Source: Gautieria morchelliformis (Eukaryota; Basidiomycota; Agaricomycetes; Gomphales; Gomphaceae). Taken from it: a stretch of DNA of 64,000 nt. The position numbers and the translations under genes are program-made. Shown here piece after piece: positions 6,165 through 48,413 of the stretch (position 1 is the stretch's first letter; each line of letters begins with the position of its first letter). Under the pieces are notes generated by a model that was given only the letters and a program-made list of their open reading frames with translations, ran no database searches and had not been told where the DNA came from. The DNA lies in the NCBI GenBank assembly GCA_015179125.1, contig WHVA01000033.1, positions 248,001 to 312,000 on the forward strand. The letters run 5' to 3'.

Positions 6165-6830
6165 GTCTTCAGTCTCGCAGCAGACGGACCGGCCGTCGTG
6201 CTATCGTCCCCAGGCGAATCGCACGCGGTCTTGGCCTCCATTTATCTCGACAGTACACCCGCTCTGTGAATAGAGGTGAGCCTCGAGAGCACTCTCGCTT
6301 GACATCCGGAGCTCGGCCTCGGAGGATAGCGGAGACGATCCAGCACTCGACGAACATGGTGATGCGATAGTCGATTCGCTCGAGTACCATATCCCATACA
6401 ACTCCGAGGAGACGTTGCGCGGGACCCGTCCACCATTCATCGTTTCTGATGGCTCGTCGACGTCCATGCGGTCAAATCCATTCAATATATCCGCCACCGC
6501 TTCCGCCGTGGTGTCAATGGATTCCCTCGTGTTTGCCCGACGGTCCCGGAGCCACGCGTGCGGCGGGACGACGAAAGGGTCGGATGTGAGCTGGGACGGC
6601 TCGTAGACAGCCGGGTAGGCGTGAACCGACGTTTTGGGAGGGTTGAGGGGTTGTCGCTGTGTGGCACGGGTGTATGCTCCTCGACCGATGTGGGAAGTTT
6701 ATGGAAGAGTTTTGTCAGTTTCGGTATCTCGAGGGGGAGTGAATTTTGCCGGCACCAAGGGCATAGTAGAACAAGGCTGAAGGAGAGCTGAAAAGCGCGA
6801 AGCGTGAAGTTTTTATAGTCCCGCACGCGT
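6165..6830 (-). pseudogene. HD2 C-terminal remnant without homeodomain (psi-2)
   Basis: Minus-strand HD2 tail sequence (WLRDRRANTR, AVADILNGFDRM, ELYGIWYSSE in HD2c numbering) is joined directly to the promoter-like and MPLVPAKF start segment seen in psi-1. The join skips both homeodomain exons, so the reading frame ends soon after KTLP. It lies tail-to-tail with psi-1. The part from 6507 on belongs to a segment repeated at 39144. Confidence 0.8.
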
Positions 6831-7559
6831 GTGGCACGGCCGGGCCGGGCCCAGACTGGATTGGGATTCCGACAAGGAAACATAAATAATGTATCATCCA
6901 ACTGCATTTTTGTCTCCGACAACCAGCCTGATGTCACGATGCGTCAGGGAGCATTGTCTCAATGAGACATTATTATGCCTTGCTTCCGACAACTTCAAAG
7001 AAAATTCCGACACGAGTTTAGAGAAAGTACAAAGAATTGAACGAGATGACCGCGAAGTCAGATCATGTCATTGTTGAACGTTGAACGTTGAACAACCAGC
7101 TCTAATCCTCAGTAGCAGTAAAACAGATATTATCTTTAGTGGCTTTCTCGTTCCGTGCATTCACAGTGGACAGAGCTGGATGCCGCCGAGGCAATTGATC
7201 TAGGCGGCACCATCCACAACATAGGAGATGCCGTAGCACGCCGGGCAGGTTGCCCTTTTGTGTTCGCTTTCGGTCAGAATTGTTGACTCGGATGTTTTAA
7301 TTACCCCGAAAATTAGGCGGCTTCAGCCAGCAATATTGCTACACATGAGTACATGTACAATATTACTGTAATCAAAGAAAAAGCGAACGACGTGAGACGT
7401 GACACACGCCATAAAAATATACTGACGAGGAATCGAGACTGCACTGGTCAATACTTATCCGCGGCAGACGCACTTCGAAGTGCGGCTTGATACATGCACC
7501 AGACCATCCGCGCTCCTAAGACGTGGATCCTGTGGCGCTACGACACAACGGACGCTGCA

Positions 7560-7995
7560 GCGAGCCCAATTTCAAAGTGGGAGACAGCTGTTCGGTCTGC
7601 GACTCCAATGCGTCAACACCCATGCTGCATGCATGCAGGCATGGCTCCTCAGACTCGTAGCAGACGGACCGGCCGTCGTGCTGTCGTCCCCGGACGAATC
7701 GCATGCACGCGGTATCTGCCTCAATTTCTGCCTAATGCCTTGGGGTCCGGAGAGGTTATAGTCCCACCGGAGACGCAGCATACGCCGGTATCTCGTGAGT
7801 ACACGAGCTCGGTGCATCGCGATCAGCATCGAGATCGGAGTATCGCCTTGACGAATACGATGATGCGCGGGATGCGGCCATCGAGGAGACGTTGCGCCGC
7901 ATCGACGGACGAGAAACCTGTCCACCCGTCATCTTTGCGGTCGAATCCACCATTTTATCTCGCGGGTACACAGGGTTTCCTACAAGTATCGCGGA
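7560..7995 (-). pseudogene. Diverged HD2 C-terminal exon
   Basis: On the minus strand the sequence follows the C-terminal exon of HD2c with many changes: TGGQVSRPSMRRNVSS against KGGRLPRNVSS, EIPAYAASPVG against EIPEYAVSPASG, and the same final block around the cagacggaccggccgtcgtg stretch. It is preceded by a TTGTAG acceptor like the last intron of HD2c. It lies downstream of the HD2-like N-terminal frame at 8324-8782, so the two probably come from one gene whose homeodomain exons are gone. The frame is interrupted. Confidence 0.6.
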
Positions 7996-8323
7996 GAGTG
8001 ATTAGGAAAATGGAATGACAATAAAAATAGATAGACGCAGGGCTCGTGAGCTCACGTACGGGAACATATAGCATTTTCTTGCAAATACAGAAACGAGAAG
8101 ACATCGCCGTACAACGGGAAGAGACCAGCAGAAGAGAACACACATATGTAGAAACATGGCCAGCAACAGCAAGGAACTCGATCCTACGAAATAAAGACAC
8201 GGGAATCCAACGCCCGTGAATATAATCCCCAAGCCCGGTATGTCCTTCAACCAAGGACGAAAAGGACAGAGCCAAGATAACCTCGAGTGGCGGAGGCCAC
8301 CTATCGTTGCCTGCGAGGTTATA

Positions 8324-8782
8324 CTACTTGGACTGAGTCCTGTTCGCCTGAGCAGCTAGATGGGAACGCGCGAGATCCATCGACTCTCTAGCCCAACCAT
8401 CCGCAGTGTCTTTGTATAATGTGTGGAGCGTGTCGAAGAACTCGGCCACAAGGTCTTCCACCGGCGTCATGCCTGGAGCTTGAGACATGTTGGCCACCTT
8501 CTCTACCGTAGTACGAAACGTGCCCTCAAATTTCAGTCGAAGATAGTGCGTGTTTTGTTGATAGATGTCCGACAGCCTCTTTGCCACCTCTGTGGTCACG
8601 CCAATATCGACAAGTTGGGAATCCAACGGTCCTGCAGAAGAAAAGTGGAAATGGGAAATGTCGATTGGTGTGGTGGTCGATGAAGTGGGATGGCTTGAGG
8701 CGGACATCGCCTCGAGTATTTTGGTTGCAGCGGCATCCATCTCGCGAAGAACTTGGATGGTTGACGTGAAAGACCCCGACAT
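8324..8782 (-). CDS. HD2-like N-terminal (specificity) domain only, no homeodomain
   Basis: An open frame of 152 codons starts MSGSFTSTI (an upstream in-frame ATG exists at 8821). Residues around 50-75 (QLVDIGVTTEVAKRLSDIY) match the N-terminal dimerisation and specificity region of the HD2 proteins in this window (HD2b QLVDIGLPYNTIEKLSEVY). HD2 N-termini pair with HD1 partners in other mushrooms. The frame ends where HD2b and HD2c splice into homeodomain exons, and no homeodomain is found in the 300 bp downstream. A second copy at 40970-41428 encodes the same protein. It is either a pseudogene or a short protein able to bind HD1 but not DNA; the sequence cannot decide. Confidence 0.6.
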   Translation of the reverse strand: MSGSFTSTIQVLREMDAAATKILEAMSASSHPTSSTTTPIDISHFHFSSAGPLDSQLVDIGVTTEVAKRLSDIYQQNTHYLRLKFEGTFRTTVEKVANMSQAPGMTPVEDLVAEFFDTLHTLYKDTADGWARESMDLARSHLAAQANRTQSK

Positions 8783-9547
8783 GGTAGAGCGAGAGCTAGG
8801 CTGAAGGAAAACCTGTGGCACGAGCAGCTTTTATTGCAAAGAGTCACCCCTCGTGTTTCACGACTACCGCGGATCGAGCCGAATCGTAATCGAATCGATC
8901 TCAGTTGCGCTCCAAGGGCTTGAGTTCTGCCTGACATCCTTGACAGCCAGATATCGTGGTGAACTCGTGGGGGACTTGGGCCGTGAATGCCGGCAAAGAC
9001 TAAGAGAATTCGTGAACGCGTCATTGGCAGAAGCAGAGAGAAGCCCCTCCTTTCAAGTTGGGGCTGAATTTGAACGCCACGAACACGAGGCACCAGATTA
9101 TATACCTTGCAGCGATTTACATAAGCACGAGCTTTCAACGTCGATAGCCCCAGTCGTCTTAATGATACCGATCGTTGATCCCCACAATGTTGGCGCTTTC
9201 GGGTGTGCATGAAGCTTTAGTGGCTCTCGCAGAGATAAGTGGACAAAGGGGTGGAGCAGCTGAGTCAGCCGATCTCAGACTGTATCAAACATGTCCAATC
9301 CTTCTCGCCCATTACTACCCACCAGTCGCAAGGCTCAGAAGTAGTGACTGGAAGGGCGAGCGGTAGGGGTAGCGGTATCCCCCTGATGAGAGCTTTCGTC
9401 GGCTCGAAACCGCTGCAAATCTGTGACTCTGTCTCCCCCAGCAACCGTCTTCCCTAGCCAAGCAGAGCCCAATCTTCGGAGATGGCTGGTGCAAGGTTGT
9501 GGTCTGGCGAGCGGCGCTCTGCTGGACGCGGCTGCCTGCTCACAGGC
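8783..9547. other. Noncoding flank of the HD2-like frame
   Basis: The upstream side of the HD2-like frame holds no gene I recognise. Scattered plus-strand frames are short and are not conserved in the second copy. It is part of the 6507-9547 duplication. Confidence 0.5.
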
Positions 9548-9766: not shown

Positions 9767-10025
9767 TGTTGGAGTCAGGGTCGGTAAGCAGAGAACGCAG
9801 GGCCAAGTAGGTTAGGGGGAAGGATTTATCATCGTATAGTAAAATAGTATTACTGGCCTCGGTCAAGTATGACCGAGGCCCTATATCTACTCGCTCCACA
9901 ATCGCTAACCCCTCAGTGAACTGGCCGTTCACTGAGGTACGTGCCCCCATCCGATTATGTATCCTAATGGTATACTTACTGTCATGTAGGCTTCATACTA
10001 TTAGATACTGCGCATAACCGCTACA
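9767..10025 (+). repeat. 5' LTR of copia A
   Basis: 259 bp, TGTTGGAGTC..CCGCTACA, followed at once by the element's primer-binding region and, at 10030, the gag start. Confidence 0.9.
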
Positions 10026-10029
10026 GGTT

Positions 10030-11700: not shown

Positions 11701-11705
11701 CGTAC

Positions 11706-23070: not shown

Positions 23071-23783
23071 ACGTCTCAATCTAGCTCTGTTTCTTGCGGT
23101 GCCACGCTAGGCATCGGTGCCCCTTACGCTACCTAGAGCCTCCTTGCGGGGCTCACCGGAATTCATCAGCGTTTAAGTAGCGGAGCGTTCTTACACGCGG
23201 CAAATTCCGCCCCCGCCTGCAGGCTCTTTTGCCGCAGCATGCTGAGTCTTATCTCCTATTTTCTTCCTTCACTTCTGTACTTTTAACTGGCTGTAAGCAG
23301 TTCTCTCTCTCTCTTTTTCTCTTGAAGTTCGGCTGAACTTCACCACGCGAGTAGTCTCGAGTCCCGCTGAACATGTCAGCATCCACGTCATTGGACCGTC
23401 ATCCAGCGGACGGACCACCCCTGCCTACTCAGCGACTCCGCGAGTCGCCCCTGTGCTTCGCTTGCCCGCAGCGCTCCCACATCGCACAGGTGTTTTTGAT
23501 TTTTGCTCGCCAGCTGCACTCGCACTAACCCGCATTCAGTTTCCACGCTCACGTTGCTTTCCCCACCCTCCCTCTTCCTTTGTTTCCTGAATGTGCATGT
23601 AGGCTTTTTCCCACCGGGTTTTTTACCGCCGCATGTCATTTTCAGCTATTTTCTTTACGTACCCTGCCCCCTTTCTTCTCGCCTCAATGTACTTAGTAAC
23701 GTCTCAATCCAGCTCTGTTTCTTGCGGTGCCACGCTAGGCATCGGTGCCCCTTACGCTACCTAGAGCCTCCTTGTGGGGCTCA
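23071..23783 (+). repeat. 85-bp direct repeats bracketing the element D terminal segment
   Basis: Copies at about 23071-23155 and 23699-23783 share gctctgtttcttgcggtgcc and onward to cctagagcctccttg with very few differences. They are 628 bp apart. The segment between holds the sequence that reappears inverted at 35633-36008. Confidence 0.85.
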
Positions 23784-23815: not shown

Positions 23816-23957
23816 GAGTTTGAATTCGGTGCCACAAGACCTTTCGTGCGTCTCACATTATGCGTCCTATGGCTATCCCTCCAATGATCCAACATGTGGT
23901 CGATGATGTGGGTTGTATCAAGTAAGCCAAGGATAACATTATGCTACTCGCAATGTG
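23816..23957. other. HD2b upstream remnant
   Basis: About 140 bp between the end of element D and the HD2b start codon. No clear TATA box. The native HD2b promoter is probably cut by the retroelement. Confidence 0.4.
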
Positions 23958-24835
23958 ATGGTTGACCTTGCCAGCAGTGAACCTGATTTAAGTGCTATTC
24001 GAGAGATGATTGACATAGCAGAGTCGATCTGTCAGAGGATCGGCATTACGCGTTCAACACCCAGTGTGGCTGCTCAAGACCCACCATTCACCCTTGCCAA
24101 CGACTTTCTCCACTTCCCTCTTGCGGCGCCAATTAAGCCGCAGCTGGTTGATATTGGTCTACCGTATAACACAATTGAAAAGCTATCGGAGGTCTACATG
24201 CGCCAAGTAGAAGCGCTTAAAGTCACGTCTGAACAGATTGCGCGTGCCACATGCTTACAGCTGGCGTCACTTCCCCAGGTCAATGATACCATGCCACTGG
24301 AAACCATTCAGAGAAGAGTCTGTGAAGCCCATTGTCAAAGGTACAGAGCGACGCTGGACAAATTGGTGCAGGAGGCGATTGCTCTTGCTCATAATCACGT
24401 CACTGTTTGTCACAACACTTTGGCCCAAGACTTGGCCCCCGAAACTGTGAAGAACTCTCAAAAGAAGCCTAGGCGACCATTCAAAACGGTGGGCTCTTAG
24501 TCATGGAGATATCGTGTTTCCTGACATTGTATACCTAAGGAATATCTTCCTCTCTTTGAATTCGCATTCCAACGAGACCACTTTCCAAGCCGCGAAGACA
24601 AAAACCACCTTGCGCGCATCTCCGGGATGTCCTTTCACCAAGTCACCAACTGGGTGCGTCTCTCCACAATAATCTCCCTTACTCGCTATTTAATCCTTGT
24701 GCACAGTTCCAAAATCGTCGCTGTCGACAAGCCTCCCGCGCCCAATCAACCCGCACCACGGCCTCTCCCAGGACTTTCGAGGAGATGAGGGAACATCTCG
24801 GCGACTCTGTGCGGGAGGCGCAGCTTCGACGACTA
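23958..24835 (+). pseudogene. HD2b mating-type homeodomain gene, 5' part (interrupted)
   Basis: Exon 1 (23958-24488, 177 codons) holds a specificity region unlike HD2c at the start (MVDLASSEPDLSAIREMIDI) but sharing LVDIGLPYNTIEKLSEVYMRQ with it. Exon 2 (24540-24653, 114 nt) has FPSREDKNHLARISGMS and ends in TGG. Exon 3 starts at 24707 with FQNRRCRQ. All introns have GT..AG ends and the same positions as HD2c. The homeodomain (about residues 172-235) is in frame. After REAQ at about 24835 the gene stops matching and LINE sequence begins; the match resumes at 28960. HD2 proteins dimerise with HD1 partners to control dikaryon genes; this copy is split by about 4.1 kb. Confidence 0.88.
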
Positions 24836-24839
24836 TACT

Positions 24840-28969: not shown

Positions 28970-29774
28970 GAAGAAGCTGAATCCGAACCATACTGAACAC
29001 TACGGTACATATGAACTGCATATCCTGATGCAAGGTCCTCCAAGACGCTCGGCTGTTCCAGAGATCATTGTCTTGGATGATGACACGCCACCTGAGCCGA
29101 GTACGCGGGCTGTATCGCCGGGCGCGCCATCGCCTTGGTCGTGTTCTGACGAGCGCGTTGAGTTGACAGGCTGTGGGCTTTTGGTGCGAGTTTCAGCTTA
29201 TTTTATAGTTTTGCAACATTCCTAATCACGCCACGCGATAGGAGACTGCGGTATATGAACTTCCCATATCGGTCGAGGAGCATACACCCGTGCCACCCAG
29301 CGACAACCCCTCAACCCTCCCAAAACGTCGGTTCACGCCTACCCGGCTGTCTACGAGCCGTCCCAGCGGACGTCAGACCCTTTCGTCGTCGCGCCGCACG
29401 CGTGGCTCCGGGACCGTCGGGCAAACACCAGGCAGTTTATTGACACCACTGCGGAAGCGGTGGCGGACGTACTGAGTGGATTTGACCGCATGGACGTCGA
29501 TGAGCAGTCCGAAAGGATGACGGGCGGACGGCTCCCGCGCAACGTTTCCTCGGAGTCGGAGTTGTATGGGATGTGGTACTCGAGCGAATCGACTATCGCA
29601 TCACCGTTTTCGTCGAGTGCGGGATCGTCTCCGCTATGCTCCGAGACCGAGCTCCCGACGTCAAGCGAGAGTGCTGTCGAGGCTCACCTCGATGCACCGA
29701 GCGGGTGTGCTGTCGAGATACCGGAGAATGTTGTGTCTCTCGCCAGTGGAGCCTCCCTGGATCCCGAGGCCTAA
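28960..29774 (+). pseudogene. HD2b, 3' part
   Basis: It resumes the HD2 C-terminal region: HPLTKKLNPN, GTYELHILMQGPPRRSAVPE, IIVLDDDTPPEPST, then after an intron VADVLSGFDRMDVDEQ to the end LASGASLDPEA. Compared with HD2c, one C is missing in a run near 29307, which shifts the frame of the last exon. Together with 23958-24835 it forms one interrupted HD2 gene. Confidence 0.85.
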
Positions 29775-30640
29775 ATGGAGGTCGAGACCGCGTGCGATTC
29801 GCCTGGGGACGATAGCACGACGGCCGGTCCCTCTGCTGCGAGTCTGGTCGCTGTGAGCTGTATGGACCCACGCAGCATGCACTGCACCATGATCTATATG
29901 CCTTATGGTCTATATGCCTTATTGTCTATATGTCCTATGCCCATCAATATGTCTTATGGTCTTGTATGTGTAGTATGTAGCAAGCAATCATTACTTTCCA
30001 GTGTCGTGCCAGCGGAAGTTAAAAGCATCATCGCCGAGTCCGGCCTCGCGCGCCACCCGGGGCGCATCTGCCCTTTGATGGATAAGACGGGCAAACCACA
30101 ATGACGTACCGCGCCTAGCGCTCAGTCACGCACTCGCGTGGCGAACTGCGCGCATCCGCCGAATCCGCCGATCATCGATATCGATCAGCAACAAACGGTC
30201 TATGCTTACTCGGTCGTGACAGAGGCTCGGAGGCTGAGCGCTGGCGCTGAGCGTTGGGGACGGCCCAATGGAGGCGCGCGGAGAGGGAGAGCAACTGGTC
30301 CATGTTGGGATGTAGGTGTCGCCGCGCCATCGATCCAGTTGCAGCAGCAGCCGCCGATGAGTGAAAAGAAGAAGCTCCAAGTGCGAGATATGTGGGAAAA
30401 ACGCGAGGAGAGGTAGGCTATGGAATGTGGAGATTATATACTTAGCATTGGAACAATAGAAATGATTGTGGCGTGGAGAAAGGAGTCACGTGGCTCGTGT
30501 CATAGATCTGTCCAATCCCTCGGCTGTGACGCGCCTAACAATCAGTGACAGTCGATCGATCGTTACGACTCGGCATGGACGGCAATTATGTAACCCTAGC
30601 GGGACTGTGGTCGACAGGACAGAGGCGTTAGCCACGCTGC
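29775..30640 (-). repeat. Inverted partner of the 42033-42720 flank
   Basis: The reverse complement of this stretch follows the sequence downstream of HD2c: the agttaaaagcatcatcgccg block, the tgacgtacc and atcgatatcgat-type blocks, the gtcacgtggctcgtgtc block, ending at gccacgctgc, which equals 42033 onward. There are several indels, one of which adds a run of tatatgcctta-type repeats near 29900. No gene is recognised in it. Confidence 0.82.
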
Positions 30641-35632: not shown

Positions 35633-36008
35633 GAGAAAGCAACGCGAGCGTGGAAACTGAATGCGGGTTAGTGCGAGTGCGGCTGGCGAGCAAAAATCAA
35701 AAACACCTGTGCGATGTGGGTGCGATGTGGGAGCGCTGCGGGCGAGCGAAGCACAGGGGCGACTCGCGGAGTCGCTGAGTAGGCAGGGGTGGTCCGTCCG
35801 CTGGACGGTCCAATGACGTGGACGCTGACATGTTCAGCGGGACTCGAGACTACTCGCGTGGTGAAGTTCAGCCGAACTTCAAGAGAAAAAGAGAGAGAGA
35901 GAACTGCTTACAGCCAGTTAAAAGTACAGAAGTGAAGGAAGAAAATAGGAGATAAGACTGAGCAGAATTCGCCGCGTGGAAGAACGCTCCGCTACTTAAA
36001 CGCTGATG
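35633..36008 (-). repeat. Inverted terminal-repeat piece of the element D family
   Basis: The reverse complement matches about 23164-23558 of element D, from catcagcgtttaagt to the gagcgtggaaac block, with few differences. It ends 31 bp before the start codon of HD1-1, so it takes the place of most of that gene's upstream region. Confidence 0.88.
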
Positions 36009-36039: not shown

Positions 36040-38473
36040 ATGTCTGCTATATCGATGCGTAACAAAACGAATATGAGACTCAGAAGCTCCATACACACCA
36101 TTAGACAGAAGTTCTTCGACGCTATCAGCGGTGACCCCCAATACCTCACTTTCTTCTTGGACGAATTCACATCATTGCAGCAAGAAATCACTAAAGAAAA
36201 GCTGTCGTCGTCTTTGGATGAAGAAACATTGGCTCTAGCGCATACTATGCAGCATGACATGGCTGTCATGGTCCGGTGTTTTCTTGATATCGAAACGACG
36301 ACCTCATCTCTACATTCCCAGCTAACGGAGGAAACGGAGGCGATTGTCGATGCATACAAGGAAGGCTCTTCCTGGAGTCAGACCTTACCATCCGCAGAAT
36401 CCAAGAGAGTACCCAAACCGTTACTTCAATCTCCCCCCCATCCAACCACCACACCCATCGCATCCGCCCTTGCTACCACACTCCCCTCTCGTAACCCTTC
36501 TAGCACCGCATCATCCCGCTCTGCCTCTGACCGAAATCCCCTCCCAGAGTTCATCGAACACGCCTACAAATTCTTCGTCTCCCACATCTTCAACCCATAC
36601 CCCACCCGCGAGGAAAAACAAGCCATTGCTGATGAAACGAACAATAGCCGTGTCACACGCTCCACCGTCTCGAATTGGTTCGCCAACGCCCGTCGACGGT
36701 GTGGATGGATAGATATCCTCAAGCAGCGGTGTAACGGCAATCGCGACCAGATGGTTGATCTTGCGAAACGGGTCTTCGTCAAGCCCGATCCACGCCATCC
36801 AGTTGACCCTCAGATTGTCGCCGAGTTGATGGATATGAAAGAGAGCGCAGAGTCAATGTACGAAGACAACACTCGGACCAGCGCGTGGATCGACGAACTA
36901 GAGGAGATGGAGGAGCTCATCAACCCGATACCCGAGGTGGAGCGGCTGGCGGCGAAGAAGCGCGAGGCTGAGGCAGAACGTGAATTGCGCAAACGACAAA
37001 AGGAGATGCTCAAGGAGCAGCGCGACTTTGAACGGCGGAAGCGCAAGATGCAAGCAGAGGCATTGCGCAAGGCTGATAGGGTGGCGAAGGATGTGCAACA
37101 GGCGAAAGAAAAGACAGGAAAGAACAATGAGCAGCGTTCCCCCTTGCTCGTGGTGTCGTATCCCCCTACTGAACAGGATGGCAACGAATCCGTCATGGAG
37201 CCAAGCCCTGTCGCAGGCGGCAAGCGTAAACTCGACAGTGGTGACGATGGTTCTAACGACTTCTGTGAACCTCGCCACGTATCTCCTGCATACTCGCTCT
37301 CCTCGTCTGTCGATTCCGACCTATCATCGGATGGTAGAGTCCCCTCTCTGTCGTGGTCTGATAGTGGTGACGAACGACCATATAAGCGAAGCAGGTACGT
37401 TCTGTTTTAATTTATTTAGTGGATATTTCCTCATGTAATTTCCCAGAGCATCTGCCTCGACACCTTACGAATCTTCTTCCGTGACTCCCGCGCTCGAAAT
37501 CCCTACATCATTTGATTACTCCTTTACTTTCGAACCACCCACTGGCTTAACCAATGACCCCGCTGTGTTCAATTCAATGTTTAGCCTCTCCGCCAACGCA
37601 GGCGAAAGTCATGTGGCCACGCCTCAGCCACCGCCACGTGGACAAAAACGGCTAGTTGACCTAGAGGAGGAGGATGAATCTACTCTTCGGGCAAAACGGG
37701 CAAAACACATCGTGGCGTCAAGTGGCCCCGAGTTGCCGCCGGCGCCCTCCACGCCGTTATTCACGCCGCCACCTTCAATCAATGGAATGCCGACAGTGAG
37801 TGCAGGTCGAAGGTCAAGCTTCGAACCTGTTGATGTCGACGCCGTCTGGGGTTTGGACCAAACAAGCCCTCCACCGATGCACAATTCTCAGCAGGACGCC
37901 TCTTTGCCTCTTGAGATTGGCGTTTTTTACTGGTTTAGTTGCGCAAATTATGCCTTGGACCAGCTCGGTAGCTCAGTGGCCGGAGATTCTGATTATGCAC
38001 AGCTTTTCCAGCTGTTCACGGAGGTGCCACCCTCTCACTTTGGAGCGCCAAAACCGATTGAACAAGATTTAGATACGCAGCTTGGGCTGCCGTCGTTCGA
38101 CGTGCCAACCTCTGATATCTTGGTTCAGCTCCCCGCGCCCGCCACCACCAACTCCCAATCCCGTGTCAATAAAGAACTCAGTCTTGACCTCAGCGGCTTA
38201 ATGTCCGGTTTCATGTCCGAGGAAGCTTATAACGACCTTGGTCTGACCTTCCCGGAATCCACCGCTTCCACTTCGCCTGGTCTCTCGCGTCCTTCTTCTT
38301 CCGTATCTCTGGCATGGAAATCTGCGCCAGAGACAATTCCAACGCCGGCAGAGCTAGCAGCGAAATTACAGAGCAAGGAGCGTAAGCGAAAGGAGATCGA
38401 AGAGAGGAAAGCTGCATTAGAGAAGGAGCGGGCGAGAGTTGCCGAGTTGGAGCGCGAGCTTGAAGATGAATGA
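36040..38473 (+). CDS. HD1 mating-type homeodomain protein (HD1-1)
   Basis: Two exons (36040-37394 and 37447-38473; 52-bp GT..AG intron) encode 793 residues. HD1 proteins are homeodomain transcription factors that dimerise with HD2 proteins from a compatible mate to switch on dikaryon development in the nucleus. Residues 1-120 form the variable specificity region (RLRSSIHTIRQKFFDAI). The homeodomain spans about 168-230 with FNPYPTREEKQAIADE and the recognition helix VSNWFANARRRCGW. A charged coiled coil follows (KREAEAERELRKRQKEM), then Lys/Arg-rich KRKLD and RPYKRSR possible nuclear signals, a Ser/Pro-rich activation-like region, and a final coil (ERARVAELERELEDE). From about residue 125 on it is nearly identical to HD1-2, but the N-terminus is different. 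A retroelement repeat ends 31 bp upstream, so expression is doubtful. Confidence 0.95.
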
Positions 38474-38999
38474 GATTTGGTTGTTAATGCTCGTAAGTCA
38501 TTTACACGTAGTGAGGCCCAAGAAGCTTTGCTGATTTTGATTCCAGTGGTTATTATAGTTTATCTTTGACCCGCTGATCACCCACATACCACAGCCCATA
38601 TAAATACCCATCCCGTCTACAGTGCACTTGTTTTGCGTCATCAGCCTTGCTTTCCTGTTTTCGTTGCTCTCACGTTCAGCGTAACTGGGTTTTGTTATTC
38701 TCTGTCGTGTTCTGTATTCTCTGTCGTGTTCTGTATCAAAATTTGGCTGCGCATTAGTAAAGAATAGCAGGCATTCTCGTTATCCACTAATCGAGTGAAA
38801 GACATGCATGCGAACCGGACAAATTTAATGATCCATGCTCGCGCCAACCTTCAAGTCCGAACATAAGGGCGCGGGGCATCCTAAAACCCAGCGGGATGGC
38901 CATGAATGACACTAAGAGCTTGTGGAGGGTAAGTTGAAAGTGACTAGCAGAAAAGATAGCGCATGCTCCTACTACCTTCAGAGATACTTGCTATCGTAC
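38474..38999. other. HD1-1 downstream region
   Basis: Noncoding, shared with 47050-47575 downstream of HD1-2. It includes a tataaatacc TATA-like box near 38597 without a following gene that I recognise. Confidence 0.5.
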
Positions 39000-39143
39000 T
39001 TAGAACGTAGACTCGTCATCGCCAGTTAAGCTGTCCAATAGCTGAGGATCAATTGGCCCTGGTTCATGGTGTCAGAATGTATTCACATGCAATGACGATA
39101 CTTACGACCGGTCCGAACCGTATGTCGACCCATATAGGCCGCT
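39000..39143 (-). pseudogene. 3' end of the POM34-like membrane-protein gene, duplicated
   Basis: It matches 47576-47722: last exon with PIDPQLLDSLTGDDESTF and stop, the 47-bp intron, and the end of exon 2 (GRHTVRTG). It breaks off at 39143, where the HD2-tail segment begins. It marks the junction between the two HD units. Confidence 0.85.
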
Positions 39144-39508
39144 CGTGGTGTCAATGGATTCCCTCGTGTTTGCCCGACGGTCCCGGAGCCACGCGTGCGG
39201 CGGGACGACGAAAGGGTCGGATGTGAGCTGGGACGGCTCGTAGACAGCCGGGTAGGCGTGAACCGACGTTTTGGGAGGGTTGAGGGGTTGTCGCTGTGTG
39301 GCACGGGTGTATGCTCCTCGACCGATGTGGGAAGTTTATGGAAGAGTTTTGTCAGTTTCGGTATCTCGAGGGGGAATGAATTTTGCCGGCACCAAGGGCA
39401 TAGTAGAACAAGGCTGAAGGAGAGCTGAAAAGCGCGAAGCGTGAAGTTTTTATAGTCCCGCACGCGTGTGGCACGGGCCGGGCCCAGACTGGATTGGGAT
39501 TCCGACAA
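39144..39508 (-). pseudogene. HD2 remnant without homeodomain (copy of psi-2)
   Basis: Minus-strand promoter-like segment (ctataaaaac), short start (MPLVPAKF-like) and part of the HD2 C-terminal exon (HAWLRDRRANTR region), cut at the unit junction. It is almost the same as 6507-6830. Confidence 0.75.
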
Positions 39509-40199
39509 GGAAATACAAATAATGTCTCACCCAACTGCATTTTTGTCTCCGACAACCAGCCTGATGTCACGATGTGTCAGGGGGCATTGTCTCAATGAGA
39601 CATTATTATGCCTTGCTTCCGACAACTTCAAAGAATTCCGACACGAGTTTAGAGAAAGTACAAAGAATGGAACGAGATGACCGCGAAATCAGATCATGTC
39701 ATTGTTGAACGTTAAACAACCAGCTCTAATCCTCAGTAGCAGTAAAACAGATATTATTGACTTTCTTGTTCCGTGCATTCACAGTGGACAGAGCTGGATG
39801 CCGCCGAGGCAATTGATCTAGGCGGCACCATCCACAACATAGGAGATGCCGTAGCACGCCGGGCAGGTTGCCCTTTTGTGTTCGCTTTCGGTGCCAGAAT
39901 TGTTGACTCGGATGTTTTAATTACCCCGAAAATTAGGCGGCTTCAGCCAGCAATATTGCTACACATGAGTACATGTACAATATTACTGTAATCAAAGAAA
40001 AAGCGAACGACGTGAGACGTGACACACGCCATAAAAATATACTGACGAGGAATCGAGACTGCACTGGTCAATACTTATCCGCGGCAGACGCACTTCGAAG
40101 TGCGGCTTGATACATGCACCAGACCATCCGCGCTCCTAAGACGTGGATCCTGTGGCGCTACGACACAACGGACGCTGCAGCGAGCCCAATTTCAAAGTG

Positions 40200-40640
40200 G
40201 GAGACAGCTGTTCGGTCTGCGACTCCAATGCGTCAACACCCATGCTGCATGCATGCAGGCCTGGCTCCTCAGACTCGTAGCAGACGGATCGGCCGTCGTG
40301 CTGTCGTCCCCGGACGCATCGCATGCATGTGGTATCTGCCTCCATTTCTGCCTAATGCCTTGGGGTCCGGAGAGTTATAGTCCCACCGACGGGAGACGCA
40401 GCATACGTGGTATCTCGAGAGTACACGAGCTCGGTGCATCGAGACCAGCCTCGAGAGAACTCTCGGTAGCTCGGTATCGGAGTATCGCCTTGACAACGAT
40501 GATGCGCGGGATGTGGCCATCGAGGAGATGTTGCGCCGCATCGACGGACGAGGAGCCTGTCCACCTGTCATCTTTGCGGTCGAATCCACCATTTTATCTT
40601 GCGGGTACACAGAGTTTCCTACACGTATCGCGGAGAGTGG
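40200..40640 (-). pseudogene. Diverged HD2 C-terminal exon (copy 2)
   Basis: The second copy of 7560-7995, with the MTGGQAPRPSMRRNISSMA block on the minus strand. It differs from copy 1 by several indels, unlike the HD2-like N-terminal frame upstream, which is unchanged. Confidence 0.6.
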
Positions 40641-40969
40641 TTAGGAAAATGGAATGACAATAAAAATAGATAGACGCAAGGCTTGTGAGCCGCTCACGTA
40701 CGGGAACATATAGCATATTCTTGCAAATACAGAAACAGGAAGACATCGCCGTACAACAGGAAGAAACCAGTTGATCAGAAGAGATCACACATATGTAGAA
40801 ACATGGCCAGCAACAGCAAGGAACTCGATCCTACGAAATAAAGACACGGGAATCCAACGCCCGTGAATATAACCCCAAGCCCGGTATGTCCTTCAACCAA
40901 GGACGAAAAGGACAGAGCCAAGATAACCTCGAGTGGCGGAGGCCACCTATCGTTGCCTGCGAGATTATA

Positions 40970-41428
40970 CTACTTGGACTGAGTCCTGTTCGCCTGAGCA
41001 GCTAGATGGGAACGCGCGAGATCCATCGACTCTCTAGCCCAACCATCCGCAGTGTCTTTGTATAATGTGTGGAGCGTGTCGAAGAACTCGGCCACAAGGT
41101 CTTCCACCGGCGTCATGCCTGGAGCTTGAGACATGTTGGCCACCTTCTCTACCGTAGTACGAAACGTGCCCTCAAATTTCAGTCGAAGATAGTGCGTGTT
41201 TTGTTGATAGATGTCCGACAGCCTCTTTGCCACCTCTGTGGTCACGCCAATATCGACAAGTTGGGAATCCAACGGTCCTGCAGAAGAAAAGTGGAAATGG
41301 GAAATGTCGATTGGTGTGGTGGTCGATGAAGTGGGATGGCTTGAGGCGGACATCGCCTCGAGTATTTTGGTTGCAGCGGCATCCATCTCGCGAAGAACTT
41401 GGATGGTTGACGTGAAAGACCCCGACAT
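40970..41428 (-). CDS. HD2-like N-terminal domain only, second copy
   Basis: It encodes the same 152 residues as 8324-8782, including QLVDIGVTTEVAKRLSDIY, with no homeodomain exons between it and the diverged C-terminal exon at 40200-40640. Identity of the two copies points to recent duplication. In known A loci the HD2 N-terminus mediates partner choice, so a product could in principle occupy HD1. It may equally be a silent remnant. Confidence 0.6.
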   Translation of the reverse strand: MSGSFTSTIQVLREMDAAATKILEAMSASSHPTSSTTTPIDISHFHFSSAGPLDSQLVDIGVTTEVAKRLSDIYQQNTHYLRLKFEGTFRTTVEKVANMSQAPGMTPVEDLVAEFFDTLHTLYKDTADGWARESMDLARSHLAAQANRTQSK

Positions 41429-42034
41429 GGTAGAGCGAGAGCTAGGCTGAAGGAAAACCTGTGGCACGAGCAGCTTTTATTGCAAAGAGTCACCCCTCGT
41501 GTTTCACGACTACCGCGGATCGAGCCGAATCGTAATCGAATCGATCTCAGTTGCGCTCCAAGGGCTAGAGTTCTGCCTGACATTCTTGACAGCCAGATAT
41601 CGTGGTGAACTCGTGGGGACTTGGGCCGTGAATGCCGGCAAAGACTAAGAGCCCCTCCTTTCAAGTTGGGGCTGAATTTGAACGCCACGAACACGAGGCA
41701 CCAGATTATATACCTTGCAGCGATTTACATAAGCACGAGCTTTCAACGTCGATAGCCCCAGTCGTCTTAATGATACCGATCGTTGATCCCCACAATGTTG
41801 GCGCTTTCGGGTGTGCATGAAGCTTTAGTGGCTCTCGCAGAGATAAGTGGAGCAGCTGAGTCAGCCGATCTCAGACTGTATCAAACATGTCCAATCCTTC
41901 TCGCCCATTACTACCCACCAGTCGCAAGGCTCAGAAGTAGTGACTGGAAGGGCGAGCGGTAGGGGTAGCGGTATCCCCCTGCTCGAAACCGTGGCGAGCG
42001 GCGCTCTGCTGGACGCGGCTGCCTGCTCACAGGC

Positions 42035-42703: not shown

Positions 42704-44494
42704 TCATTTTGTAGACTCGGCGACCCTGGCTTGATTCTTCAGTCGCACCAGACGGACCGGCCGTCGTGCTATCGTCCCCAGGCGAATCGCACGCGGTCTC
42801 GGCCTCGTTTTGGCCTCAGGGTCCAGGGAGGCTCCACTGGCGGGAGACACAGCATACTCCGGTATCTCGACAGTACACGCGCTCTGTGAATCGAGGTGAG
42901 CCTCGAGAGCATTCTCGCTTGACGTCGGGAGCTCGGCCTCGGAGGATAGCGGAGACGAGCCAGCACTCGACGAACACGGTGATGCGATAGTCGATTCGCT
43001 CGAGTACCATATCCCATACAACTCCGACTCTGAGGAGACGTTGCGCGGGAGCCGTCCGCCCTTCATCTTTTCGGACGGCTCATCGACGTCCATGGTGTCA
43101 AATCCACTCAGTATATCCGCCACCGCTTCCGCGGTGGTGTCAATGGATTCCCTCGTATTTGCCCGACGGTCCCGGAGCCACGCATGCGGCGCGACGACGA
43201 AAGGGTCGGATGTAAGTTGGGACGGCTCGTAGACAGCCGGGTAAGCGTGAACCGACGTTTTGGGAGGGTTGAGGGGGTTGTCGCTGGGTGGCATGGGTGT
43301 ATGCTCCTCGATCGATGTGGGAAGTTGGTATACCGCAGTCCCCTATCGCTTGGCGTGATTAGGAATGTTGCAAAACTATAAATAAATAAGCTGAAACTCG
43401 CACCAAAAGTCCGTAGTCTGTCAACCCAACGCGCTCGTCAGAACACGACCAAGGCGATGGCGCGTCCTCTGTAACTCCTGGCGATACAGCGAGCGTACTC
43501 GGCTCAGGTGGCGTGTCATCATCCAAGACAATGATCTCTGGCACAGCCGAGCGTCTTGGAGGACCTTGCATCAGGATAGGCAGTTCATATGTACCGTAGT
43601 GTTCAGTAGGGTCCGGATTCAGCTTCTTCGTGAGTGGGTGTGACTTCGACAGCGCCTCCCGCGCAGAGTCGCCGAGACGTTCCCTCATCTCTTCGAAAGT
43701 CCTGGGAGCGGTCGTGGCGCGGCTTGATTGGGCGCGGGCGGGTGGTCGGCAGCGGCGGTTTTGGAACTGTGCACAAGGATTAAATGGCGAGTAAGGGAGA
43801 TTATTGCGGAGAGACGCACCCAGGTGGTGACCTGGCGAAGGGACATCCCGGAGATGCGTGCGAGATGCTTTTTGTCTTCGCGGCTTGGGAAGCGGTCTTT
43901 TTCGAATGCGAACTCGAAGAGTGGGAGATATTCCTTTAGGATACGTTGGAAGCCTACTAAAGGATGGATAAATCCAGTACACACCGACTTAAACCGTCGT
44001 TTAGATTTCCTGTCGGGTGAGATTGGCATATTGACGGGGGCTACCGGAGGCGAAAGCTCTGGGCTGAATGACAGACGCGATTTCACGAGGTCTATGGCCT
44101 GATTCGCCCACTCGAGTAGTGAGGACTGGTACATGTGGTGATACACATTGCATAACTGCGTTTGAAACTTCTTCTGGTGGTCGACAGCTGCTACCAGTCG
44201 CACAGAACTAAGTTGGGCCCAAGTATTGTGAAGTTTTTCTTCCAATGAGCGTTTCAACTCTTCTGCTTGGCGCATATAAGCATTTGACATGGCATCAGCT
44301 ACATCGTGCGGCAGTCCCAGAGCCACCAGTGTTGGAGTCAAAGGGGTTGGTAGGAAGAATGTGGGAACTTGTATGAGGACGGAGGATGTGATGGGACCGT
44401 TGTCGGTGCTCTCTGGGACGCCTTTGCTTACAGCTTCACGGATGCGATGGGATATCTCGAGAGCCTCGCGAAGTGCAGCCATTGTGTTAGACAT
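42704..44494 (-). CDS. HD2 mating-type homeodomain protein (HD2c), intact
   Basis: Four exons on the minus strand (44494-43985, 43933-43820, 43766-43404, 43342-42704), with introns of 51, 53 and 61 bp and GT..AG ends, encode 541 residues. It is the DNA-binding partner of HD1 in the A mating pathway. Residues 1-165 are the specificity region (start MSNTMAALREALEISHRI). The homeodomain spans about 172-235: FEKDRFPSREDKKHLARISG, then VTTW spliced to FQNRRCR. The C-terminal part has an acidic IIVLDDDTPPEPST stretch and Ser/Glu-rich tail. I chose the ATG at 44494 over the in-frame one at 44578 because 44494 gives the usual HD2 start and leaves a promoter. It is divergent from HD1-2, 129 bp away. 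All splice sites and the homeodomain are intact. Confidence 0.93.
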
Positions 44495-44623: not shown

Positions 44624-46963
44624 ATGGCGGTCTCTCTGAACGTGGAACTCCGCGACTCCCTCCATTCTATCCAACTGGATTTTATTGACGCTCTGAACGA
44701 TGGATCCAAATCTCTCTCTAGATTTTACTCGTCGTGGATTGCCTTGCGCCAGAGGATTGTGCAAGCAGTAACTCAATCAGCTCTCGACCAGAGCACGATT
44801 GCCCTGGCGCGAACAGTCGCGCAGAATGTCGCTGTAATTGGCCAAAGCTTTCTCGACGTCGAAGCCGCGACGTCTGTATTTCACTCCAGCCTTGTATCGG
44901 AGGCGCAGGCTGCGATTGACACTGAAACTGGCGGGCAACAACTTTCTACTTCCTCTTCTGTACCACCCCAAACCCTCCGTTCACCAAAACCTTCCCTTCA
45001 GCCGCGCCACCCAACAACCACTCCCGTCGCATCTACCTTCGCCACCATCATCCCCTCCCGTAACCCTTCTGGCACCGCATCCGTCACCGCGTCTTCCCGC
45101 TCTGCCTCTCACCCAAATCACCTCCCAGAGTACATCGAACACGCCTACAAATTCTTCGTCTCCCACATCTTCAACCCATACCCCACCCGCGAGGAAAAAC
45201 AGGCCATAGCTGATGAAACGAACAATAGCCGTGTCACACACTCCACCGTCTCGAATTGGTTCGCCAACGCCCGTCGACGGTGTGGATGGATAGATATCCT
45301 CAAGCAGCGATGTAACGGCAATCGCGACCAGATGGTTGATCTTGCGAAGCGGGTCTTCGTCAAGCCCGATCCACGCCATCCAGTTGACCCTCAGATTGTC
45401 GCCGAGTTGATGGATATGAAAGAGAGCGCAGAGTCAATGTACGAAGACAACACTCGGACCAGCGCGTGGATCGACGAACTAGAGGAGATGGAGGAGCTCA
45501 TCAACCCGATACCCGAGGTGGAGCGGCTGGCGGCGAGGAAGCGCGAGGCTGAGGCAGAACGTGAATTGCGCAAACGACAAAAGGAGATGCTCAAGGAGCA
45601 GCGCGACTTTGAACGGCGGAAGCGCAAGATGCAAGCAGAGGCATTGCGGAAGGCTGATAGGGTGGCGAAGGATGTGCAACAGGCGAAAGAAAAGACAGGA
45701 AAGAACAATGAGCAGAGTTCCACCTCGCTCGTGGTGTCGTATCCCCCTACTGAACAGGATGGCAACGAATCCGTCGTGGAGCCAAGCCCTGTCGCAGGCG
45801 GCAAGCGTAAACTCGACAGTGGTGACGATGGTTCTAACGACTTCTGTGAACCTCGCCACGTATCTCCTGCATACTCGCTCTCCTCGTCTGTCGATTCCGA
45901 CCTATCATCAGTTGGTAGAGTCCCCTCTCTGTCGTGGTCTGATAGTGGTGACGAACGACCATACAAGCGAAGCAGGTACGTTTGTTTTAATTTATTTAGT
46001 GGATATTTCCTCATGTAATTTCCCAGAGCATCTGCCTCGACACCTTACGAATCTTCTTCCGTGACTCCCGCGCTCGAAGTCCCTACATCGTTTGATTACT
46101 CCTTTACTTTCGAACCACCCACTGGCTTAACCAATGACCCCGCTGTGTTCAATTCAATGTTTAGCCTCTCTGCCAACACAGGCGAAAGTCATGTGGCCAC
46201 GCCTCAGCCACCGCCACGTGGACAAAAACGGCTAGTTGACCTAGAGGAGGAGGATGAATCTACTCTTCGGGCCAAACGGGCAAAACACATCGAGGCGTCA
46301 AGTGGCCCCGAGCTGCCGCCGGCGCCCTCCACGCCGTTATTCACGCCGCCACCTTCAATCAACGGAACGCCGACAGTGAGTGCAGGTCGAAGGTCAAGCT
46401 TCGAACCTGCTGATGTCAACGCCGTCTGGGGTTTGGACCAAACAAGCCCTCCACCGATGCACAATTCTCAGAAGGACGCCTCTTTGCCTTTTGAGATTGG
46501 CGTTTTTGACTGGTCTAGTTGCGCAAATTCTGCCTTGGACCAGCTCGGTAGCTCAGTGGCCGGAGATTCTGATTATGCACAGCTTTTCCAGCTGTTCACG
46601 GAGGTGCCGCCCTCTCACTTTGGAGCGCCAAAACCGATTGAACAAGATTTAGATACGCAGCTCGGGCTGCCGTCGTTCGACGTGCCAACCTCTGATTTCT
46701 TGGTTCAGCTCCCCGCGCCCGCCACCACCAACTCCCAATCCCGTGTCAATAAAGAACTCGGTCTTGACCTCAGCGGCTTAATGTCCGGTTTCATGTCCGA
46801 GGAGGCTTATAACGACCTTGGTCTGACCTTCCCGGAATCCACCGCTTCCACTTCGCCTGGTCTCTCGCGTCCTTCTTCTCCCGTATCTCTGGCATGGAAA
46901 TCTGCGCCAGAGACAATTCCAGCCGGCAGAGCTAGCAGCGAAATTACAGAGCAAGGAGCGTAA
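44624..46963 (+). CDS. HD1 mating-type homeodomain protein (HD1-2)
   Basis: Two exons (44624-45975 and 46027-46963, 51-bp intron) encode 762 residues. The N-terminus (MAVSLNVELRDSLHSIQLDF) is clearly different from HD1-1, while homeodomain (NPYPTREEKQAIADE, VSNWFANARRRCGW at about 165-228), coiled coil and C-terminal region are nearly the same. A 2-nt loss near 46920 relative to HD1-1 changes the last residues to AGRASSEITEQGA and removes the final coiled coil (about 44 residues, ending ERELEDE in HD1-1). The nearby bases of the old tail remain to about 47051. Whether the tail matters is not known. It pairs head-to-head with HD2c. Confidence 0.95.
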
Positions 46964-47575
46964 GCGAAAGGAGCTCGAAGAGAGGAAGGTTGCATTAGAG
47001 AAGGAGCAGGCGAGAGTTGCCGAGTTGGAGCGCGAGCTTGAAGATGAATGAGATTTGGTTGTTAATGCTCGTAAGTCATTTACACGTAGTGAGGCCCAAG
47101 AAGCTTTGCTGATTTTGATTCCAGTGGTTATTATAGTTTATCTTTGACCCGCTGATCACCCACACCCACATCATACCACATCATACCACAGCCCATATAA
47201 ATACCCATCCCGTCCGCAGTGCACTTGTTTTGCGTCATCAGCCTTGCTTTCCAGTTTTCGTTGCTCTCACGTTCAGCGTAACTGGGTTTTGTTATTCTCT
47301 TTCGTGTTCTGTATCAAAATTTGGCTGCGCATTAGTAAAGAATAGCAGGCATTCTCGTTATCCACTAATTGAGTGAAAGACATGCATGCGAACAGGACAA
47401 ATTTAGTGATCCATGCTCGCGCCAACCTTCAAGTCCGAACATAAGGGCGCGGGGCATCCTAAAGCCCCAGCGAGATGGCCATGAATGACGCTAAGGGCTT
47501 GTGGAGGGTAAGTTGAAAGTGACCAGCAGAAAAGATAGCGCACGCTCCTACCTTCAGAGATACTTGCTATCGTAC
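46964..47575. other. HD1-2 downstream region
   Basis: It contains the former HD1 C-terminal codons (to 47051), a tandem accacatcat repeat near 47165 and noncoding sequence shared with the other unit. No further gene. Confidence 0.5.
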
Positions 47576-48413
47576 TTAGAACGTAGACTCGTCATCGCCA
47601 GTTAAGCTGTCCAATAGCTGAGGATCAATTGGCCCTGGTTCGTGGTGTCAGAATGTATTCACATGCAATGACGATACTTACGACCGGTCCGAACCGTATG
47701 TCGACCCATATAGGCCGCTAGGGGCGAATTGTTGTAAGAGGATGACGTGGAGAGGGACGAGGTGCCCGACTGGTTGAGTGGCGACCCTGCCGAGGACGGT
47801 ATGCTGTAGTTGAACAAGCGTGAAGGTGTCGAAAGTGGGGTGGATGCATAGCCTGAACTTGTGTATGACTTTGGGGAAGGTCGTGCCACCTGAAGCAGGA
47901 ATGTATATTAGCGGCGAATTAACAGGGTAAAGTGTAACATACCGGCGATGTGCCTAGGCCCTTGACGGGCCGCCGCACTGGTGTAACGTTCACAACGGGT
48001 TTGGAGGGTATTCGTAAAGGTGGGTATGACGCTCGTGGGTATCGAAGGGACACTACAGACACCAGGATGTTGGTTCCAAACGTCATTGTAAGGACACCTA
48101 GCTCTGTCGCCTTCATGAGCTGCCAGGTACTTATATTGAGGACAAGCACAGCCGTAAGCACACCTATTTTTGAGAATGTTTCTGTCCACGACGTCGGCAA
48201 GACGAGTGCTTTTAATCCAGAATATATTGGGAAGAACCAGTTGAACAATAAGAGCCCGGCCAAGCTGAGGATATTGTTACGTAGCATCACTAACGCAGCA
48301 TCTCGCGGCACGCGAAGACTCCATCTGGTTGTTGGCTTGCGTGTTGGAGTAGCTGGTGGTGGTAGCATGAGAGGCAAAGCGCCGCCGAGCTTGGCGGGTG
48401 AGTGACGCGTCAT
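47576..48413 (-). CDS. Two-helix membrane protein, POM34-like nucleoporin candidate
   Basis: Three exons (48413-47943, 47889-47682, 47634-47576) with GT..AG introns of 53 and 47 bp encode 245 residues. Two hydrophobic segments (about residues 46-75, LSLAGLLLFNWFFPIYSGL, and 82-102, IGVLTAVLVLNISTWQL) are followed by a Ser/Pro/Thr-rich tail (TPSRLFNYSIPSSAGSP) ending DSLTGDDESTF. Two helices followed by a Ser-rich tail fit the fungal nuclear-pore component family of Pom34, which anchors the pore in the nuclear envelope. This is a judgement from layout and feel of the sequence, not a firm match. Its 3' end is duplicated at 39000-39143, so it was the edge of the duplicated HD unit. Confidence 0.55.

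What the first reader, a model, noticed from the sequence alone, without database searches (positions are those of the whole stretch)
6507..47722. Two tandem HD units carrying different specificities: possible heteroallelic fusion of two A haplotypes
Unit 2 (39144-47722) reads HD2-like remnant, HD2c, HD1-2, POM34-like gene. Unit 1 has the same parts: 6507-9547, HD2b, HD1-1, and the POM34-like 3' end that stops at 39143. The junction at 39143/39144 joins the POM34-like exon 2 to the HD2-tail remnant. The flanking copies are near identical, yet the HD1 and HD2 N-termini of the two units differ strongly. Identical flanks with different specificity regions are hard to get from a plain tandem duplication and easy from unequal exchange between two different haplotypes. 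The result would be two specificities in cis, which could make the strain partly self-compatible unless one partner is silenced.
Basis: partly seen in the sequence, partly recalled or inferred. Interest (0 to 1): 0.88.

Follow-up and report, generated by a model that had tools for sequence, protein, structure and literature searches.

The report
Two mating-type specificities side by side
In a truffle-like fungus, the DNA block that sets mating type occurs twice in a row with nearly identical edges but anciently different recognition regions, as if two mating types had been joined on one chromosome, which could let the fungus partly switch on its own mating programme.

Summary
The window is Gautieria morchelliformis contig C371 (422,768 bp), and the tandem duplication is there at the stated coordinates. 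Left flanks (6507-9385 / 39144-41981) differ at 1.6% of aligned sites, right flanks (36600-39143 / 45181-47719) at 2.1%; they meet at a sharp, N-free junction, 39143|39144. Between the flanks the units differ anciently: HD1 N-termini are 35-36% identical with saturated dS, against dS 0.037 beyond; HD2 N-termini are 27% identical, dS saturated. dS falls on both sides, as between A-locus alleles. So two allele-like specificity cores sit in cis. Exchange between two A haplotypes is the best reading; rivals are an old two-unit locus homogenised at its edges, or an assembly join.

Corrections: HD2b lies on the + strand between inverted repeats and is broken by a 4.1-kb insertion after its homeodomain; HD1-2 has a 2-bp deletion removing a conserved C-terminal tail. 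Only HD1-1 (unit 1) and HD2c (unit 2), a between-unit pair, keep full open frames. The contig also holds an MIP-linked third HD1. Ramaria and Hysterangium also list two HD1 genes on one contig; Hysterangium shows the same pattern. Self-compatibility is untested.

The parts
6507..9385 (+). Left flank, copy 1 (unit 1): HD2-tail fragment plus HD2-like N-terminus-only ORF
   Evidence: blastn to 39144-41981, 1.6% substitutions, clustered
8324..8821 (-). HD2x copy 1: ORF resembling an HD2 N-terminal domain; no homeodomain seen behind it in the three minus-strand frames
   Evidence: tblastn between HD2x and HD2b/HD2c N-termini, frames, 8 places genome-wide
23164..23561 (-). Inverted-repeat arm beside HD2b, copy of the sequence upstream of HD1-1
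   Evidence: 356 of 363 ungapped positions equal to the 35635-36008 arm, 46 gap positions besides
23957..24821 (+). HD2b, 5' part: N-terminal domain and complete homeodomain (51-nt intron before the homeodomain)
   Evidence: gene model; public model P0020 has a Pfam homeodomain, E 1.5e-10
24822..28957 (.). 4.1-kb insertion that interrupts HD2b; contains a copia-type reverse transcriptase frame
   Evidence: HD2c is continuous across the site; PF07727 at 26177-27787
28958..29841 (+). HD2b, 3' part, separated from its homeodomain
   Evidence: 91% to HD2c; last-exon stretch stops after 153 codons against 188 in HD2c
35635..36008 (+). Inverted-repeat arm directly upstream of HD1-1
36040..38473 (+). 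HD1-1, 793 aa, exons 36040-37394 and 37447-38473, open to the conserved C-terminal tail
   Evidence: spliced model; Homeobox_KN and Mating_N; 54% to Ramaria rubella P0002 over 99%
38474..39143 (+).
   Evidence: homology to unit 2 stops at 39143 / 47719
39143..39144 (.). Junction of unit 1 and unit 2
   Evidence: right-flank homology ends and left-flank homology begins here; at most a short CCGC resemblance
39144..41981 (+). Left flank, copy 2 (unit 2)
40970..41467 (-). HD2x copy 2, identical ORF
   Evidence: 100%
42704..44494 (-). HD2c, intact HD2 gene
   Evidence: 99% to P0012 (Gautieria morchelliformis, contig 422768) over 100% of the query; Pfam homeodomain E 1.6e-10
44624..46963 (+). HD1-2, 762 aa, exons 44624-45974 and 46026-46963; 2-bp deletion at about 46921 removes the C-terminal tail
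   Evidence: (model printed before that script stopped), against (sequence; tail present in 7 of 7 relatives compared)
46964..47719 (+). Right flank, copy 2, continuous with the complete neighbouring gene

Best explanation
This is the homeodomain mating-type (A / HD) locus of Gautieria morchelliformis, in which one HD1/HD2 unit has been tandemly duplicated so that the two copies carry two different A specificities. Shown: recently shared flanks (about 2% divergence), a sharp junction, and between them HD2 and HD1 N-terminal cores whose synonymous divergence is saturated. Inferred: in a diploid nucleus with two different A haplotypes, a break inside the right-hand neighbour gene of one homologue was joined to an HD2-tail repeat on the left side of the other, placing the two specificities in cis. 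Afterwards HD2b was flipped, copying its upstream region into inverted repeats, and was cut by mobile elements, and HD1-2 lost its tail. What would still act is HD1-1 (unit 1) with HD2c (unit 2). If their N-termini dimerise, as HD proteins from different haplotypes do, the nucleus would switch on the A pathway without a mate. That last step is untested.
For: Flank identity and junction. dS saturated in HD1 codons 1-120, 0.69 in 120-156, 0.19 in 156-170, 0.037 and 0.036 beyond. HD2: dS saturated in the N-terminus, 0.55 in the homeodomain exon, 0.10-0.17 in the rest. So divergence peaks at the specificity domains and falls on both sides. Mismatches in the right flank are evenly spread up to the junction (variance/mean 0.84, p 0.64), as expected of one event. 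HD1-2's N-terminus is as close or closer to several other sequences (43%, 38%, 37%, 36%) than to HD1-1 (35%), while the two are 97% alike over homeodomain plus C-terminus and sisters there at 100/100. The search with unit 2's HD1 and right flank found only these two places in the assembly.
Against: The N-terminal tree cannot reject HD1-1 + HD1-2 as a clade (AU p 0.396), most of its forks are open, and HD1-1's closest N-terminus in the set is HD1-2 (35%, next 33%). Two HD1 genes on one contig are also listed for Ramaria rubella and Hysterangium stoloniferum, the latter with the same pattern (N 17%, homeodomain+C 96%), which fits an older two-unit locus. Left-flank mismatches are clustered (variance/mean 3.06, longest identical run 602 bases, p 0.0006), so later exchange or conversion has acted there. 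No single-unit parental haplotype was available.
Confidence: 0.5

Rival explanations
1. The two units are old paralogs, a standing two-unit HD locus of this lineage; gene conversion between units has kept flanks and HD1 C-termini alike while the N-terminal cores stayed apart.
For: Two HD1 genes listed on one contig in Ramaria rubella (P0002, P0008) and Hysterangium stoloniferum (P0004, P0026); clustered identity in the left flank; N-terminal sisterhood not rejected and HD1-1's closest N-terminus is HD1-2. Divergence with homogenisation of an HD gene is the title claim of Badrane & May 1999 (seen only in the reference list of PMC4915694).
Against: The right flank is uniformly 2.1% diverged up to the exact break, including a truncated gene end with no evident function to preserve, and the last 59 aligned bases are identical; conversion should fade towards an edge of homology (inference). 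In Ramaria the two N-termini are 79-81% alike, unlike here.
Confidence: 0.27
2. A single haplotype was duplicated in tandem; later one core was replaced by ordinary exchange with a different haplotype. The product is the same as in the best explanation.
For: Gives the same final structure; mosaic left flank. Ramaria rubella's two units have similar N-termini (HD1 79-81%, HD2 68%), as a same-haplotype duplication would.
Against: Needs two events where one suffices (inference); none of the compared HD1 or HD2 N-terminal sequence is recently shared between the units.
Confidence: 0.13
3. Assembly artefact: two A haplotypes of a dikaryon were joined head to tail.
For: The source material (culture or fruit body, one or two kinds of nuclei) could not be established: the strain table is in a supplement that was not readable. 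The survey used PacBio with Falcon or Celera, or Illumina (PMC7550596). No second A haplotype was found in the assembly.
Against: The junction shows no sequence overlap that an assembler could join on and no N, so reads should cross it (inference). Three genes on the contig are found at one place only, apart from a 71-base neighbouring repeat piece at one of them, so the assembly behaves as haploid or collapsed. In another heterokaryotic assembly, Piriformospora indica, the two HD haplotypes came out as separate contigs (PMC3192844, passages).
Confidence: 0.1

Closest known systems
Multi-pair A (MAT-A / HD) loci of Agaricomycetes, e.g. the matA subloci of Flammulina velutipes and Coprinopsis cinerea (PMC3140503, passages)
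   Same: More than one HD gene set in cis, MIP on the same contig, inversions at the locus.
   Different: Here two units share about 98% identical flanks and HD1 C-termini and differ only in the specificity core. That the known subloci are diverged along their whole length is recalled, not tested.
xHD2 genes of Trichaptum (PMC8970355, passages and section 10)
   Same: An extra HD2 of one allelic class sits beside an HD2 of another class in some natural strains, read there as recent duplication and transfer.
   Different: Here a whole HD2+HD1 unit with flanks is doubled in tandem, with a defined junction.
Pleurotus ostreatus PC15 matA with hd1.1 and hd1.2 (PMC10739230, passages)
   Same: Extra HD1 copy in one haplotype and not in the other.
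   Different: Single extra gene; no duplicated flanks in the passages seen.
[quoted passage not shown]
   Same: Parts of two mating types in one haploid genome.
   Different: There the doubled parts are pheromone/receptor genes with one HD pair; here it is the HD locus, and self-fertility is not known.

Membership tests
Agaricomycete A (HD) mating-type locus | HD1 gene with TALE-type homeobox and mating-type N-terminal domain | tested here: met
   Homeobox_KN E 1.1e-12 and 1.8e-12, Mating_N E 9.3e-8 and 2.9e-10 for HD1-1 and HD1-2
Agaricomycete A (HD) mating-type locus | HD2 gene with classical homeodomain | tested here: met
   P0012 (HD2c) E 1.6e-10, P0020 (HD2b) E 1.5e-10
Agaricomycete A (HD) mating-type locus | HD1 and HD2 divergently transcribed as a pair | tested here: inconclusive
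   Met in unit 2 (HD2c -, HD1-2 +, 129 bp between start codons). Not met in unit 1, where HD2b now lies on the + strand between inverted repeats
Agaricomycete A (HD) mating-type locus | Variable N-terminus, conserved homeodomain and C-terminus between alleles | tested here: met
   HD1 36% against 97%; dS saturated against 0.037, here between cis copies
Agaricomycete A (HD) mating-type locus | Linkage to mitochondrial intermediate peptidase (MIP) | tested here: met
   Peptidase_M3 frame, E 1.3e-79, at C371:171122-172507, about 82 kb left of unit 1; that it is MIP rather than another M3 peptidase is inferred from its place beside an HD1
Fusion of two mating-type haplotypes by unequal exchange | Tandem units with shared flanks and different specificity cores | tested here: met
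Fusion of two mating-type haplotypes by unequal exchange | Each core exists as a separate single-unit allele in the species | not testable with these tools
   No other strain's HD1 appeared; those searches did not list this assembly's own HD1 proteins from a public source either, so their silence means little
Homothallic (self-compatible) HD locus | HD1 and HD2 from one nucleus dimerise and activate development | not testable with these tools
   HD1-1 and HD2c keep open frames; no interaction or mating data
Homothallic (self-compatible) HD locus | At least one cross-unit HD1/HD2 pair structurally intact | tested here: met
   HD1-1 with HD2c intact; HD2b interrupted and HD1-2 lacks the conserved tail

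The most novel reading that the evidence does not exclude
The locus is a natural fusion of two A haplotypes that made the fungus self-compatible for the A pathway. After the fusion only one between-unit pair, HD1-1 with HD2c, was needed, so the other cross pair (HD2b, HD1-2) decayed. Comparable two-unit loci arose again in related lineages: Hysterangium (two allele-like HD1 genes on one contig) and Ramaria rubella (one full-length and one shortened HD1, one full-length and one shortened HD2 on one contig).
Probability: 0.18. Interest if true: 0.8.

Novelty: new variant of a known kind. Interest (0 to 1): 0.6.

Why it matters
Multi-pair HD loci are common in mushrooms, but how a second pair can be gained without self-activation is hard to observe. 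Here a young duplication with both breakpoints visible carries two old specificity cores, with the first decay of individual genes under way. It makes the haplotype-fusion route to new A subloci, and a possible route to selfing in hypogeous fungi, directly testable in one locus.

Tried and rejected
Rejected: nonsense codon in HD2b before the homeodomain. The TAG/TGA codons lie in a 51-nt stretch that has a counterpart of equal length in HD2c, and the public model P0020 splices it out. Rejected: plain duplication with fast selection on the N-termini; synonymous sites are saturated too. Rejected: C468 as the other A haplotype. In the 30 kb fetched of that 103-kb contig, around its TALE hit, there was no tblastn match (E<=1e-3) to HD1-1, HD1-2, HD2b, HD2c, HD2x, P0002 or P0004. 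Uninformative: pheromone receptor search PF02076, 0 matches here and in all 14 controls. RNA polymerase family PF00562 gave four main places (C148, C198, C471, C479) plus one degenerate match on C371; I did not compare them with each other, so they are only weak support for a haploid-like assembly. POM34 identity not confirmed. N-terminal clade tests did not reject sisterhood for Gautieria (p 0.396) or Hysterangium (p 0.326).

Dropped rows: of 16 relatives listed, P0010 and P0011 (weak match; C-terminal piece) were not used in the HD1 matrices and trees. In the homeodomain+C tree and matrix, P0008 and P0006 were also left out (shortened C-termini), so 14 of 16 rows were used. The tail comparison used 7 relatives; P0027, also long, was not in it. 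An earlier count said that 9 of 11 dispersed copies share an end; recounted it is 8 of 12.
Full report
WHERE IT IS. The window is G000:C371:248001-312000 of a 122-Mb, 1113-contig assembly. The HD2 protein of unit 2 matches a Gautieria morchelliformis protein (P0012, JB92DRAFT_2872146) at 99% over 100% of the query, on a contig of 422,768 bases, the length of C371. The species appears in the mycorrhizal genome survey PMC7550596 (passages and section 17 seen). That survey used PacBio with Falcon or Celera, or Illumina; the strain table is in a supplement that I could not read, so whether the DNA came from one or two kinds of nuclei is unknown.

THE DUPLICATION. Self-comparison finds two pairs of direct repeats: 6503-9385 with 39139-41981, and 36411-39143 with 44983-47719. 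On aligned columns the left flanks differ at 44 of 2804 sites and the right flanks (from 36600/45181) at 54 of 2519. The right homology ends at 39143 and the left begins at 39144. There is no N in 64 kb and only a short CCGC resemblance between the two broken ends. Right-flank mismatches are evenly spread (variance/mean 0.84, p 0.64). Left-flank ones are clustered (3.06, reached in 0 of 5000 shuffles; longest identical run 602 bases, p 0.0006). The left flank therefore also carries a trace of later exchange or conversion.

THE CORES. HD1-1 (36040-38473) and HD1-2 (44624-46963) are 97% alike over the homeodomain plus the following ~250 residues but 36% over the first 110 residues. Nei-Gojobori dS is saturated over codons 1-120, 0.69 over 120-156, 0.19 over 156-170, and 0.037 and 0.036 beyond. 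For HD2b and HD2c dS is saturated in the N-terminus, 0.55 in the homeodomain exon and 0.10-0.17 in the pieces behind it. Selection on protein sequence after a recent duplication would not saturate synonymous sites, so the cores are far older than the flanks' common origin. The fall of divergence on both sides of the specificity domains is what alleles under long balancing selection show. That HD2 alleles differ most in the N-terminal dimerisation domain is stated in PMC4915694 (passage).

RELATIVES. The two HD1 searches listed 16 different relatives; 14 of them and the two genes here make the 16 rows. Neither search listed a public HD1 protein of Gautieria itself, so they are not exhaustive. 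In the homeodomain+C tree (14 of 16 rows) HD1-1 and HD1-2 are sisters at 100/100. In the N-terminal tree (16 rows, 10 of 13 inner branches open) they are not; HD1-2 pairs with an unnamed ENA sequence (P0001) at 86/79. HD1-2's N-terminus is 43% like P0025 and 35% like HD1-1, but HD1-1's own closest is HD1-2 (35%, next 33%). A constrained test does not reject the two as sisters (p 0.396), so tree shape alone does not prove trans-species alleles. Hysterangium stoloniferum has two HD1 genes listed on a contig of the same length (469,570) with N-termini 17% and homeodomain+C 96% alike. Ramaria rubella has two HD1 and two HD2 genes listed on a contig of 228,787 bases, with similar N-termini (HD1 79-81%, HD2 68%); one of each is shortened in its public model. 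Two-unit HD loci may therefore be frequent in this subclass. Clathrus columnatus gave one HD1.

DECAY. In unit 1, HD2b lies on the + strand inside a segment flanked by inverted copies of the HD1-1 upstream region (356 of 363 ungapped positions equal). This suggests an inversion that left an upstream copy with each gene (inference). HD2b keeps its N-terminus and whole homeodomain, but a 4.1-kb insertion (24822-28957, with a copia-type reverse transcriptase frame) separates its tail, and its last-exon stretch also stops after 153 codons against 188 in HD2c. The public model P0020 runs from HD2b into the insertion. HD1-2 has a 2-bp deletion near 46921 that replaces a C-terminal tail present in 7 of 7 relatives compared. 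Before that point each HD1 copy carries a similar number of changes away from its relatives (7 in HD1-1, 9 in HD1-2, 6 undecided; counted from the rows). Full-length frames remain only for HD1-1 and HD2c, one from each unit. In Coprinopsis the HD1 protein carries the activation domain and nuclear signal, while the HD2 homeodomain is essential (PMC4915694, passage). A truncated HD2b might therefore still act and a tail-less HD1-2 might be weak; neither is known.

SURROUNDINGS. A third, divergent HD1 (31-32% to the others over its matched part) and a Peptidase_M3 frame taken as MIP (E 1.3e-79) lie at C371:171-180 kb, about 75-83 kb left of unit 1. That is the usual MIP-linked HD arrangement, so units 1 and 2 look like a second sublocus beside the POM34-like gene. 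Between them lie many HD2 fragments. The M3 gene, a GH85 gene and another right-hand neighbour are each found at one place in the assembly, apart from a 71-base neighbouring piece, and the HD1 unit at these two places only. The assembly is haploid or collapsed, with no second A haplotype found.

MECHANISM. The most economical account is exchange between two A haplotypes in a heterozygous diploid nucleus, which would put two specificities in cis at once. A same-haplotype duplication with later core replacement gives the same product. Old paralogs homogenised at their edges fit Hysterangium but explain the even 2.1% right flank, unchanged in level up to the break, less well. An assembly join needs reads that cross a junction without overlap. 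Whether HD1-1 and HD2c pair, making the strain self-compatible for the A pathway, is the key open test.

KNOWN AND NEW. Extra HD genes in cis are known (PMC3140503; PMC10739230; PMC8686365; passages of each). In Trichaptum an extra HD2 of another allelic class has been found beside the resident one (PMC8970355 section 10). Phaffia shows fusion-like joining of other mating-type genes (PMC8545103 passages). For the Gomphales, PMC9498453 reports identifying HD1 and HD2 genes in Gomphus purpuraceus; the passages seen do not describe their arrangement. I saw no description of a tandem whole-unit, two-specificity HD locus or of this Gautieria locus in the listings of searches of the held open-access library, which lacks most subscription papers. 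The case is a new variant of a known kind.

Noticed in passing
G000 outside the window: e.g. L053:458-3196, L054:660-3226, L052:1818 onward; L013-L024: The HD2 homeodomain exon, often with HD2 tail, is part of a dispersed repeat; 8 of 12 copies inspected share a sharp end (GTGTACCTAA...) about 146 bp upstream of the exon, with unrelated outer flanks. One 2.6-kb copy used as query gave 62 matched pieces genome-wide (40 of 133 candidates scored, a lower bound); 23 of the 62 cover the homeodomain exon (my count), on 18 contigs, most of them 93% or more alike. It looks like a mating-type gene fragment multiplied by a non-autonomous mobile element. A paper search for such capture (listing only) showed nothing that looked like it.
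   Followed up: partly
window 8324-8821 (-), 40970-41467 (-); C371 left of the window; C168:188705-189209: HD2x: an HD2-like N-terminal domain without homeodomain, 8 places (7 on C371, 1 on C168; 3 of the 8 partial), 90-100% alike in DNA.
   Followed up: partly
C371:177687-180007 (-), L004: Third, divergent HD1 (two long frames, 398 and 340 codons) next to a Peptidase_M3 (MIP-like) gene: probably the canonical A sublocus; its HD2 partner was not worked out.
   Followed up: partly
window 9767-17373: Copia-type LTR element in unit 1 with 241-base end repeats 99.2% alike and further repeated pieces inside; a young insertion.
   Followed up: no
window 5327-6165 (+): HD2a remnant: HD2 homeodomain (one in-frame TGA in the hit) and tail without a recognisable HD2 N-terminus, head to head with another HD2 tail at 6166-6702.
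   Followed up: no
Ramaria rubella proteins P0002, P0008, P0018, P0021: Two HD1 and two HD2 on one contig, one full-length and one shortened of each, like the state in Gautieria but with similar N-termini; rests on public gene models only.
   Followed up: partly
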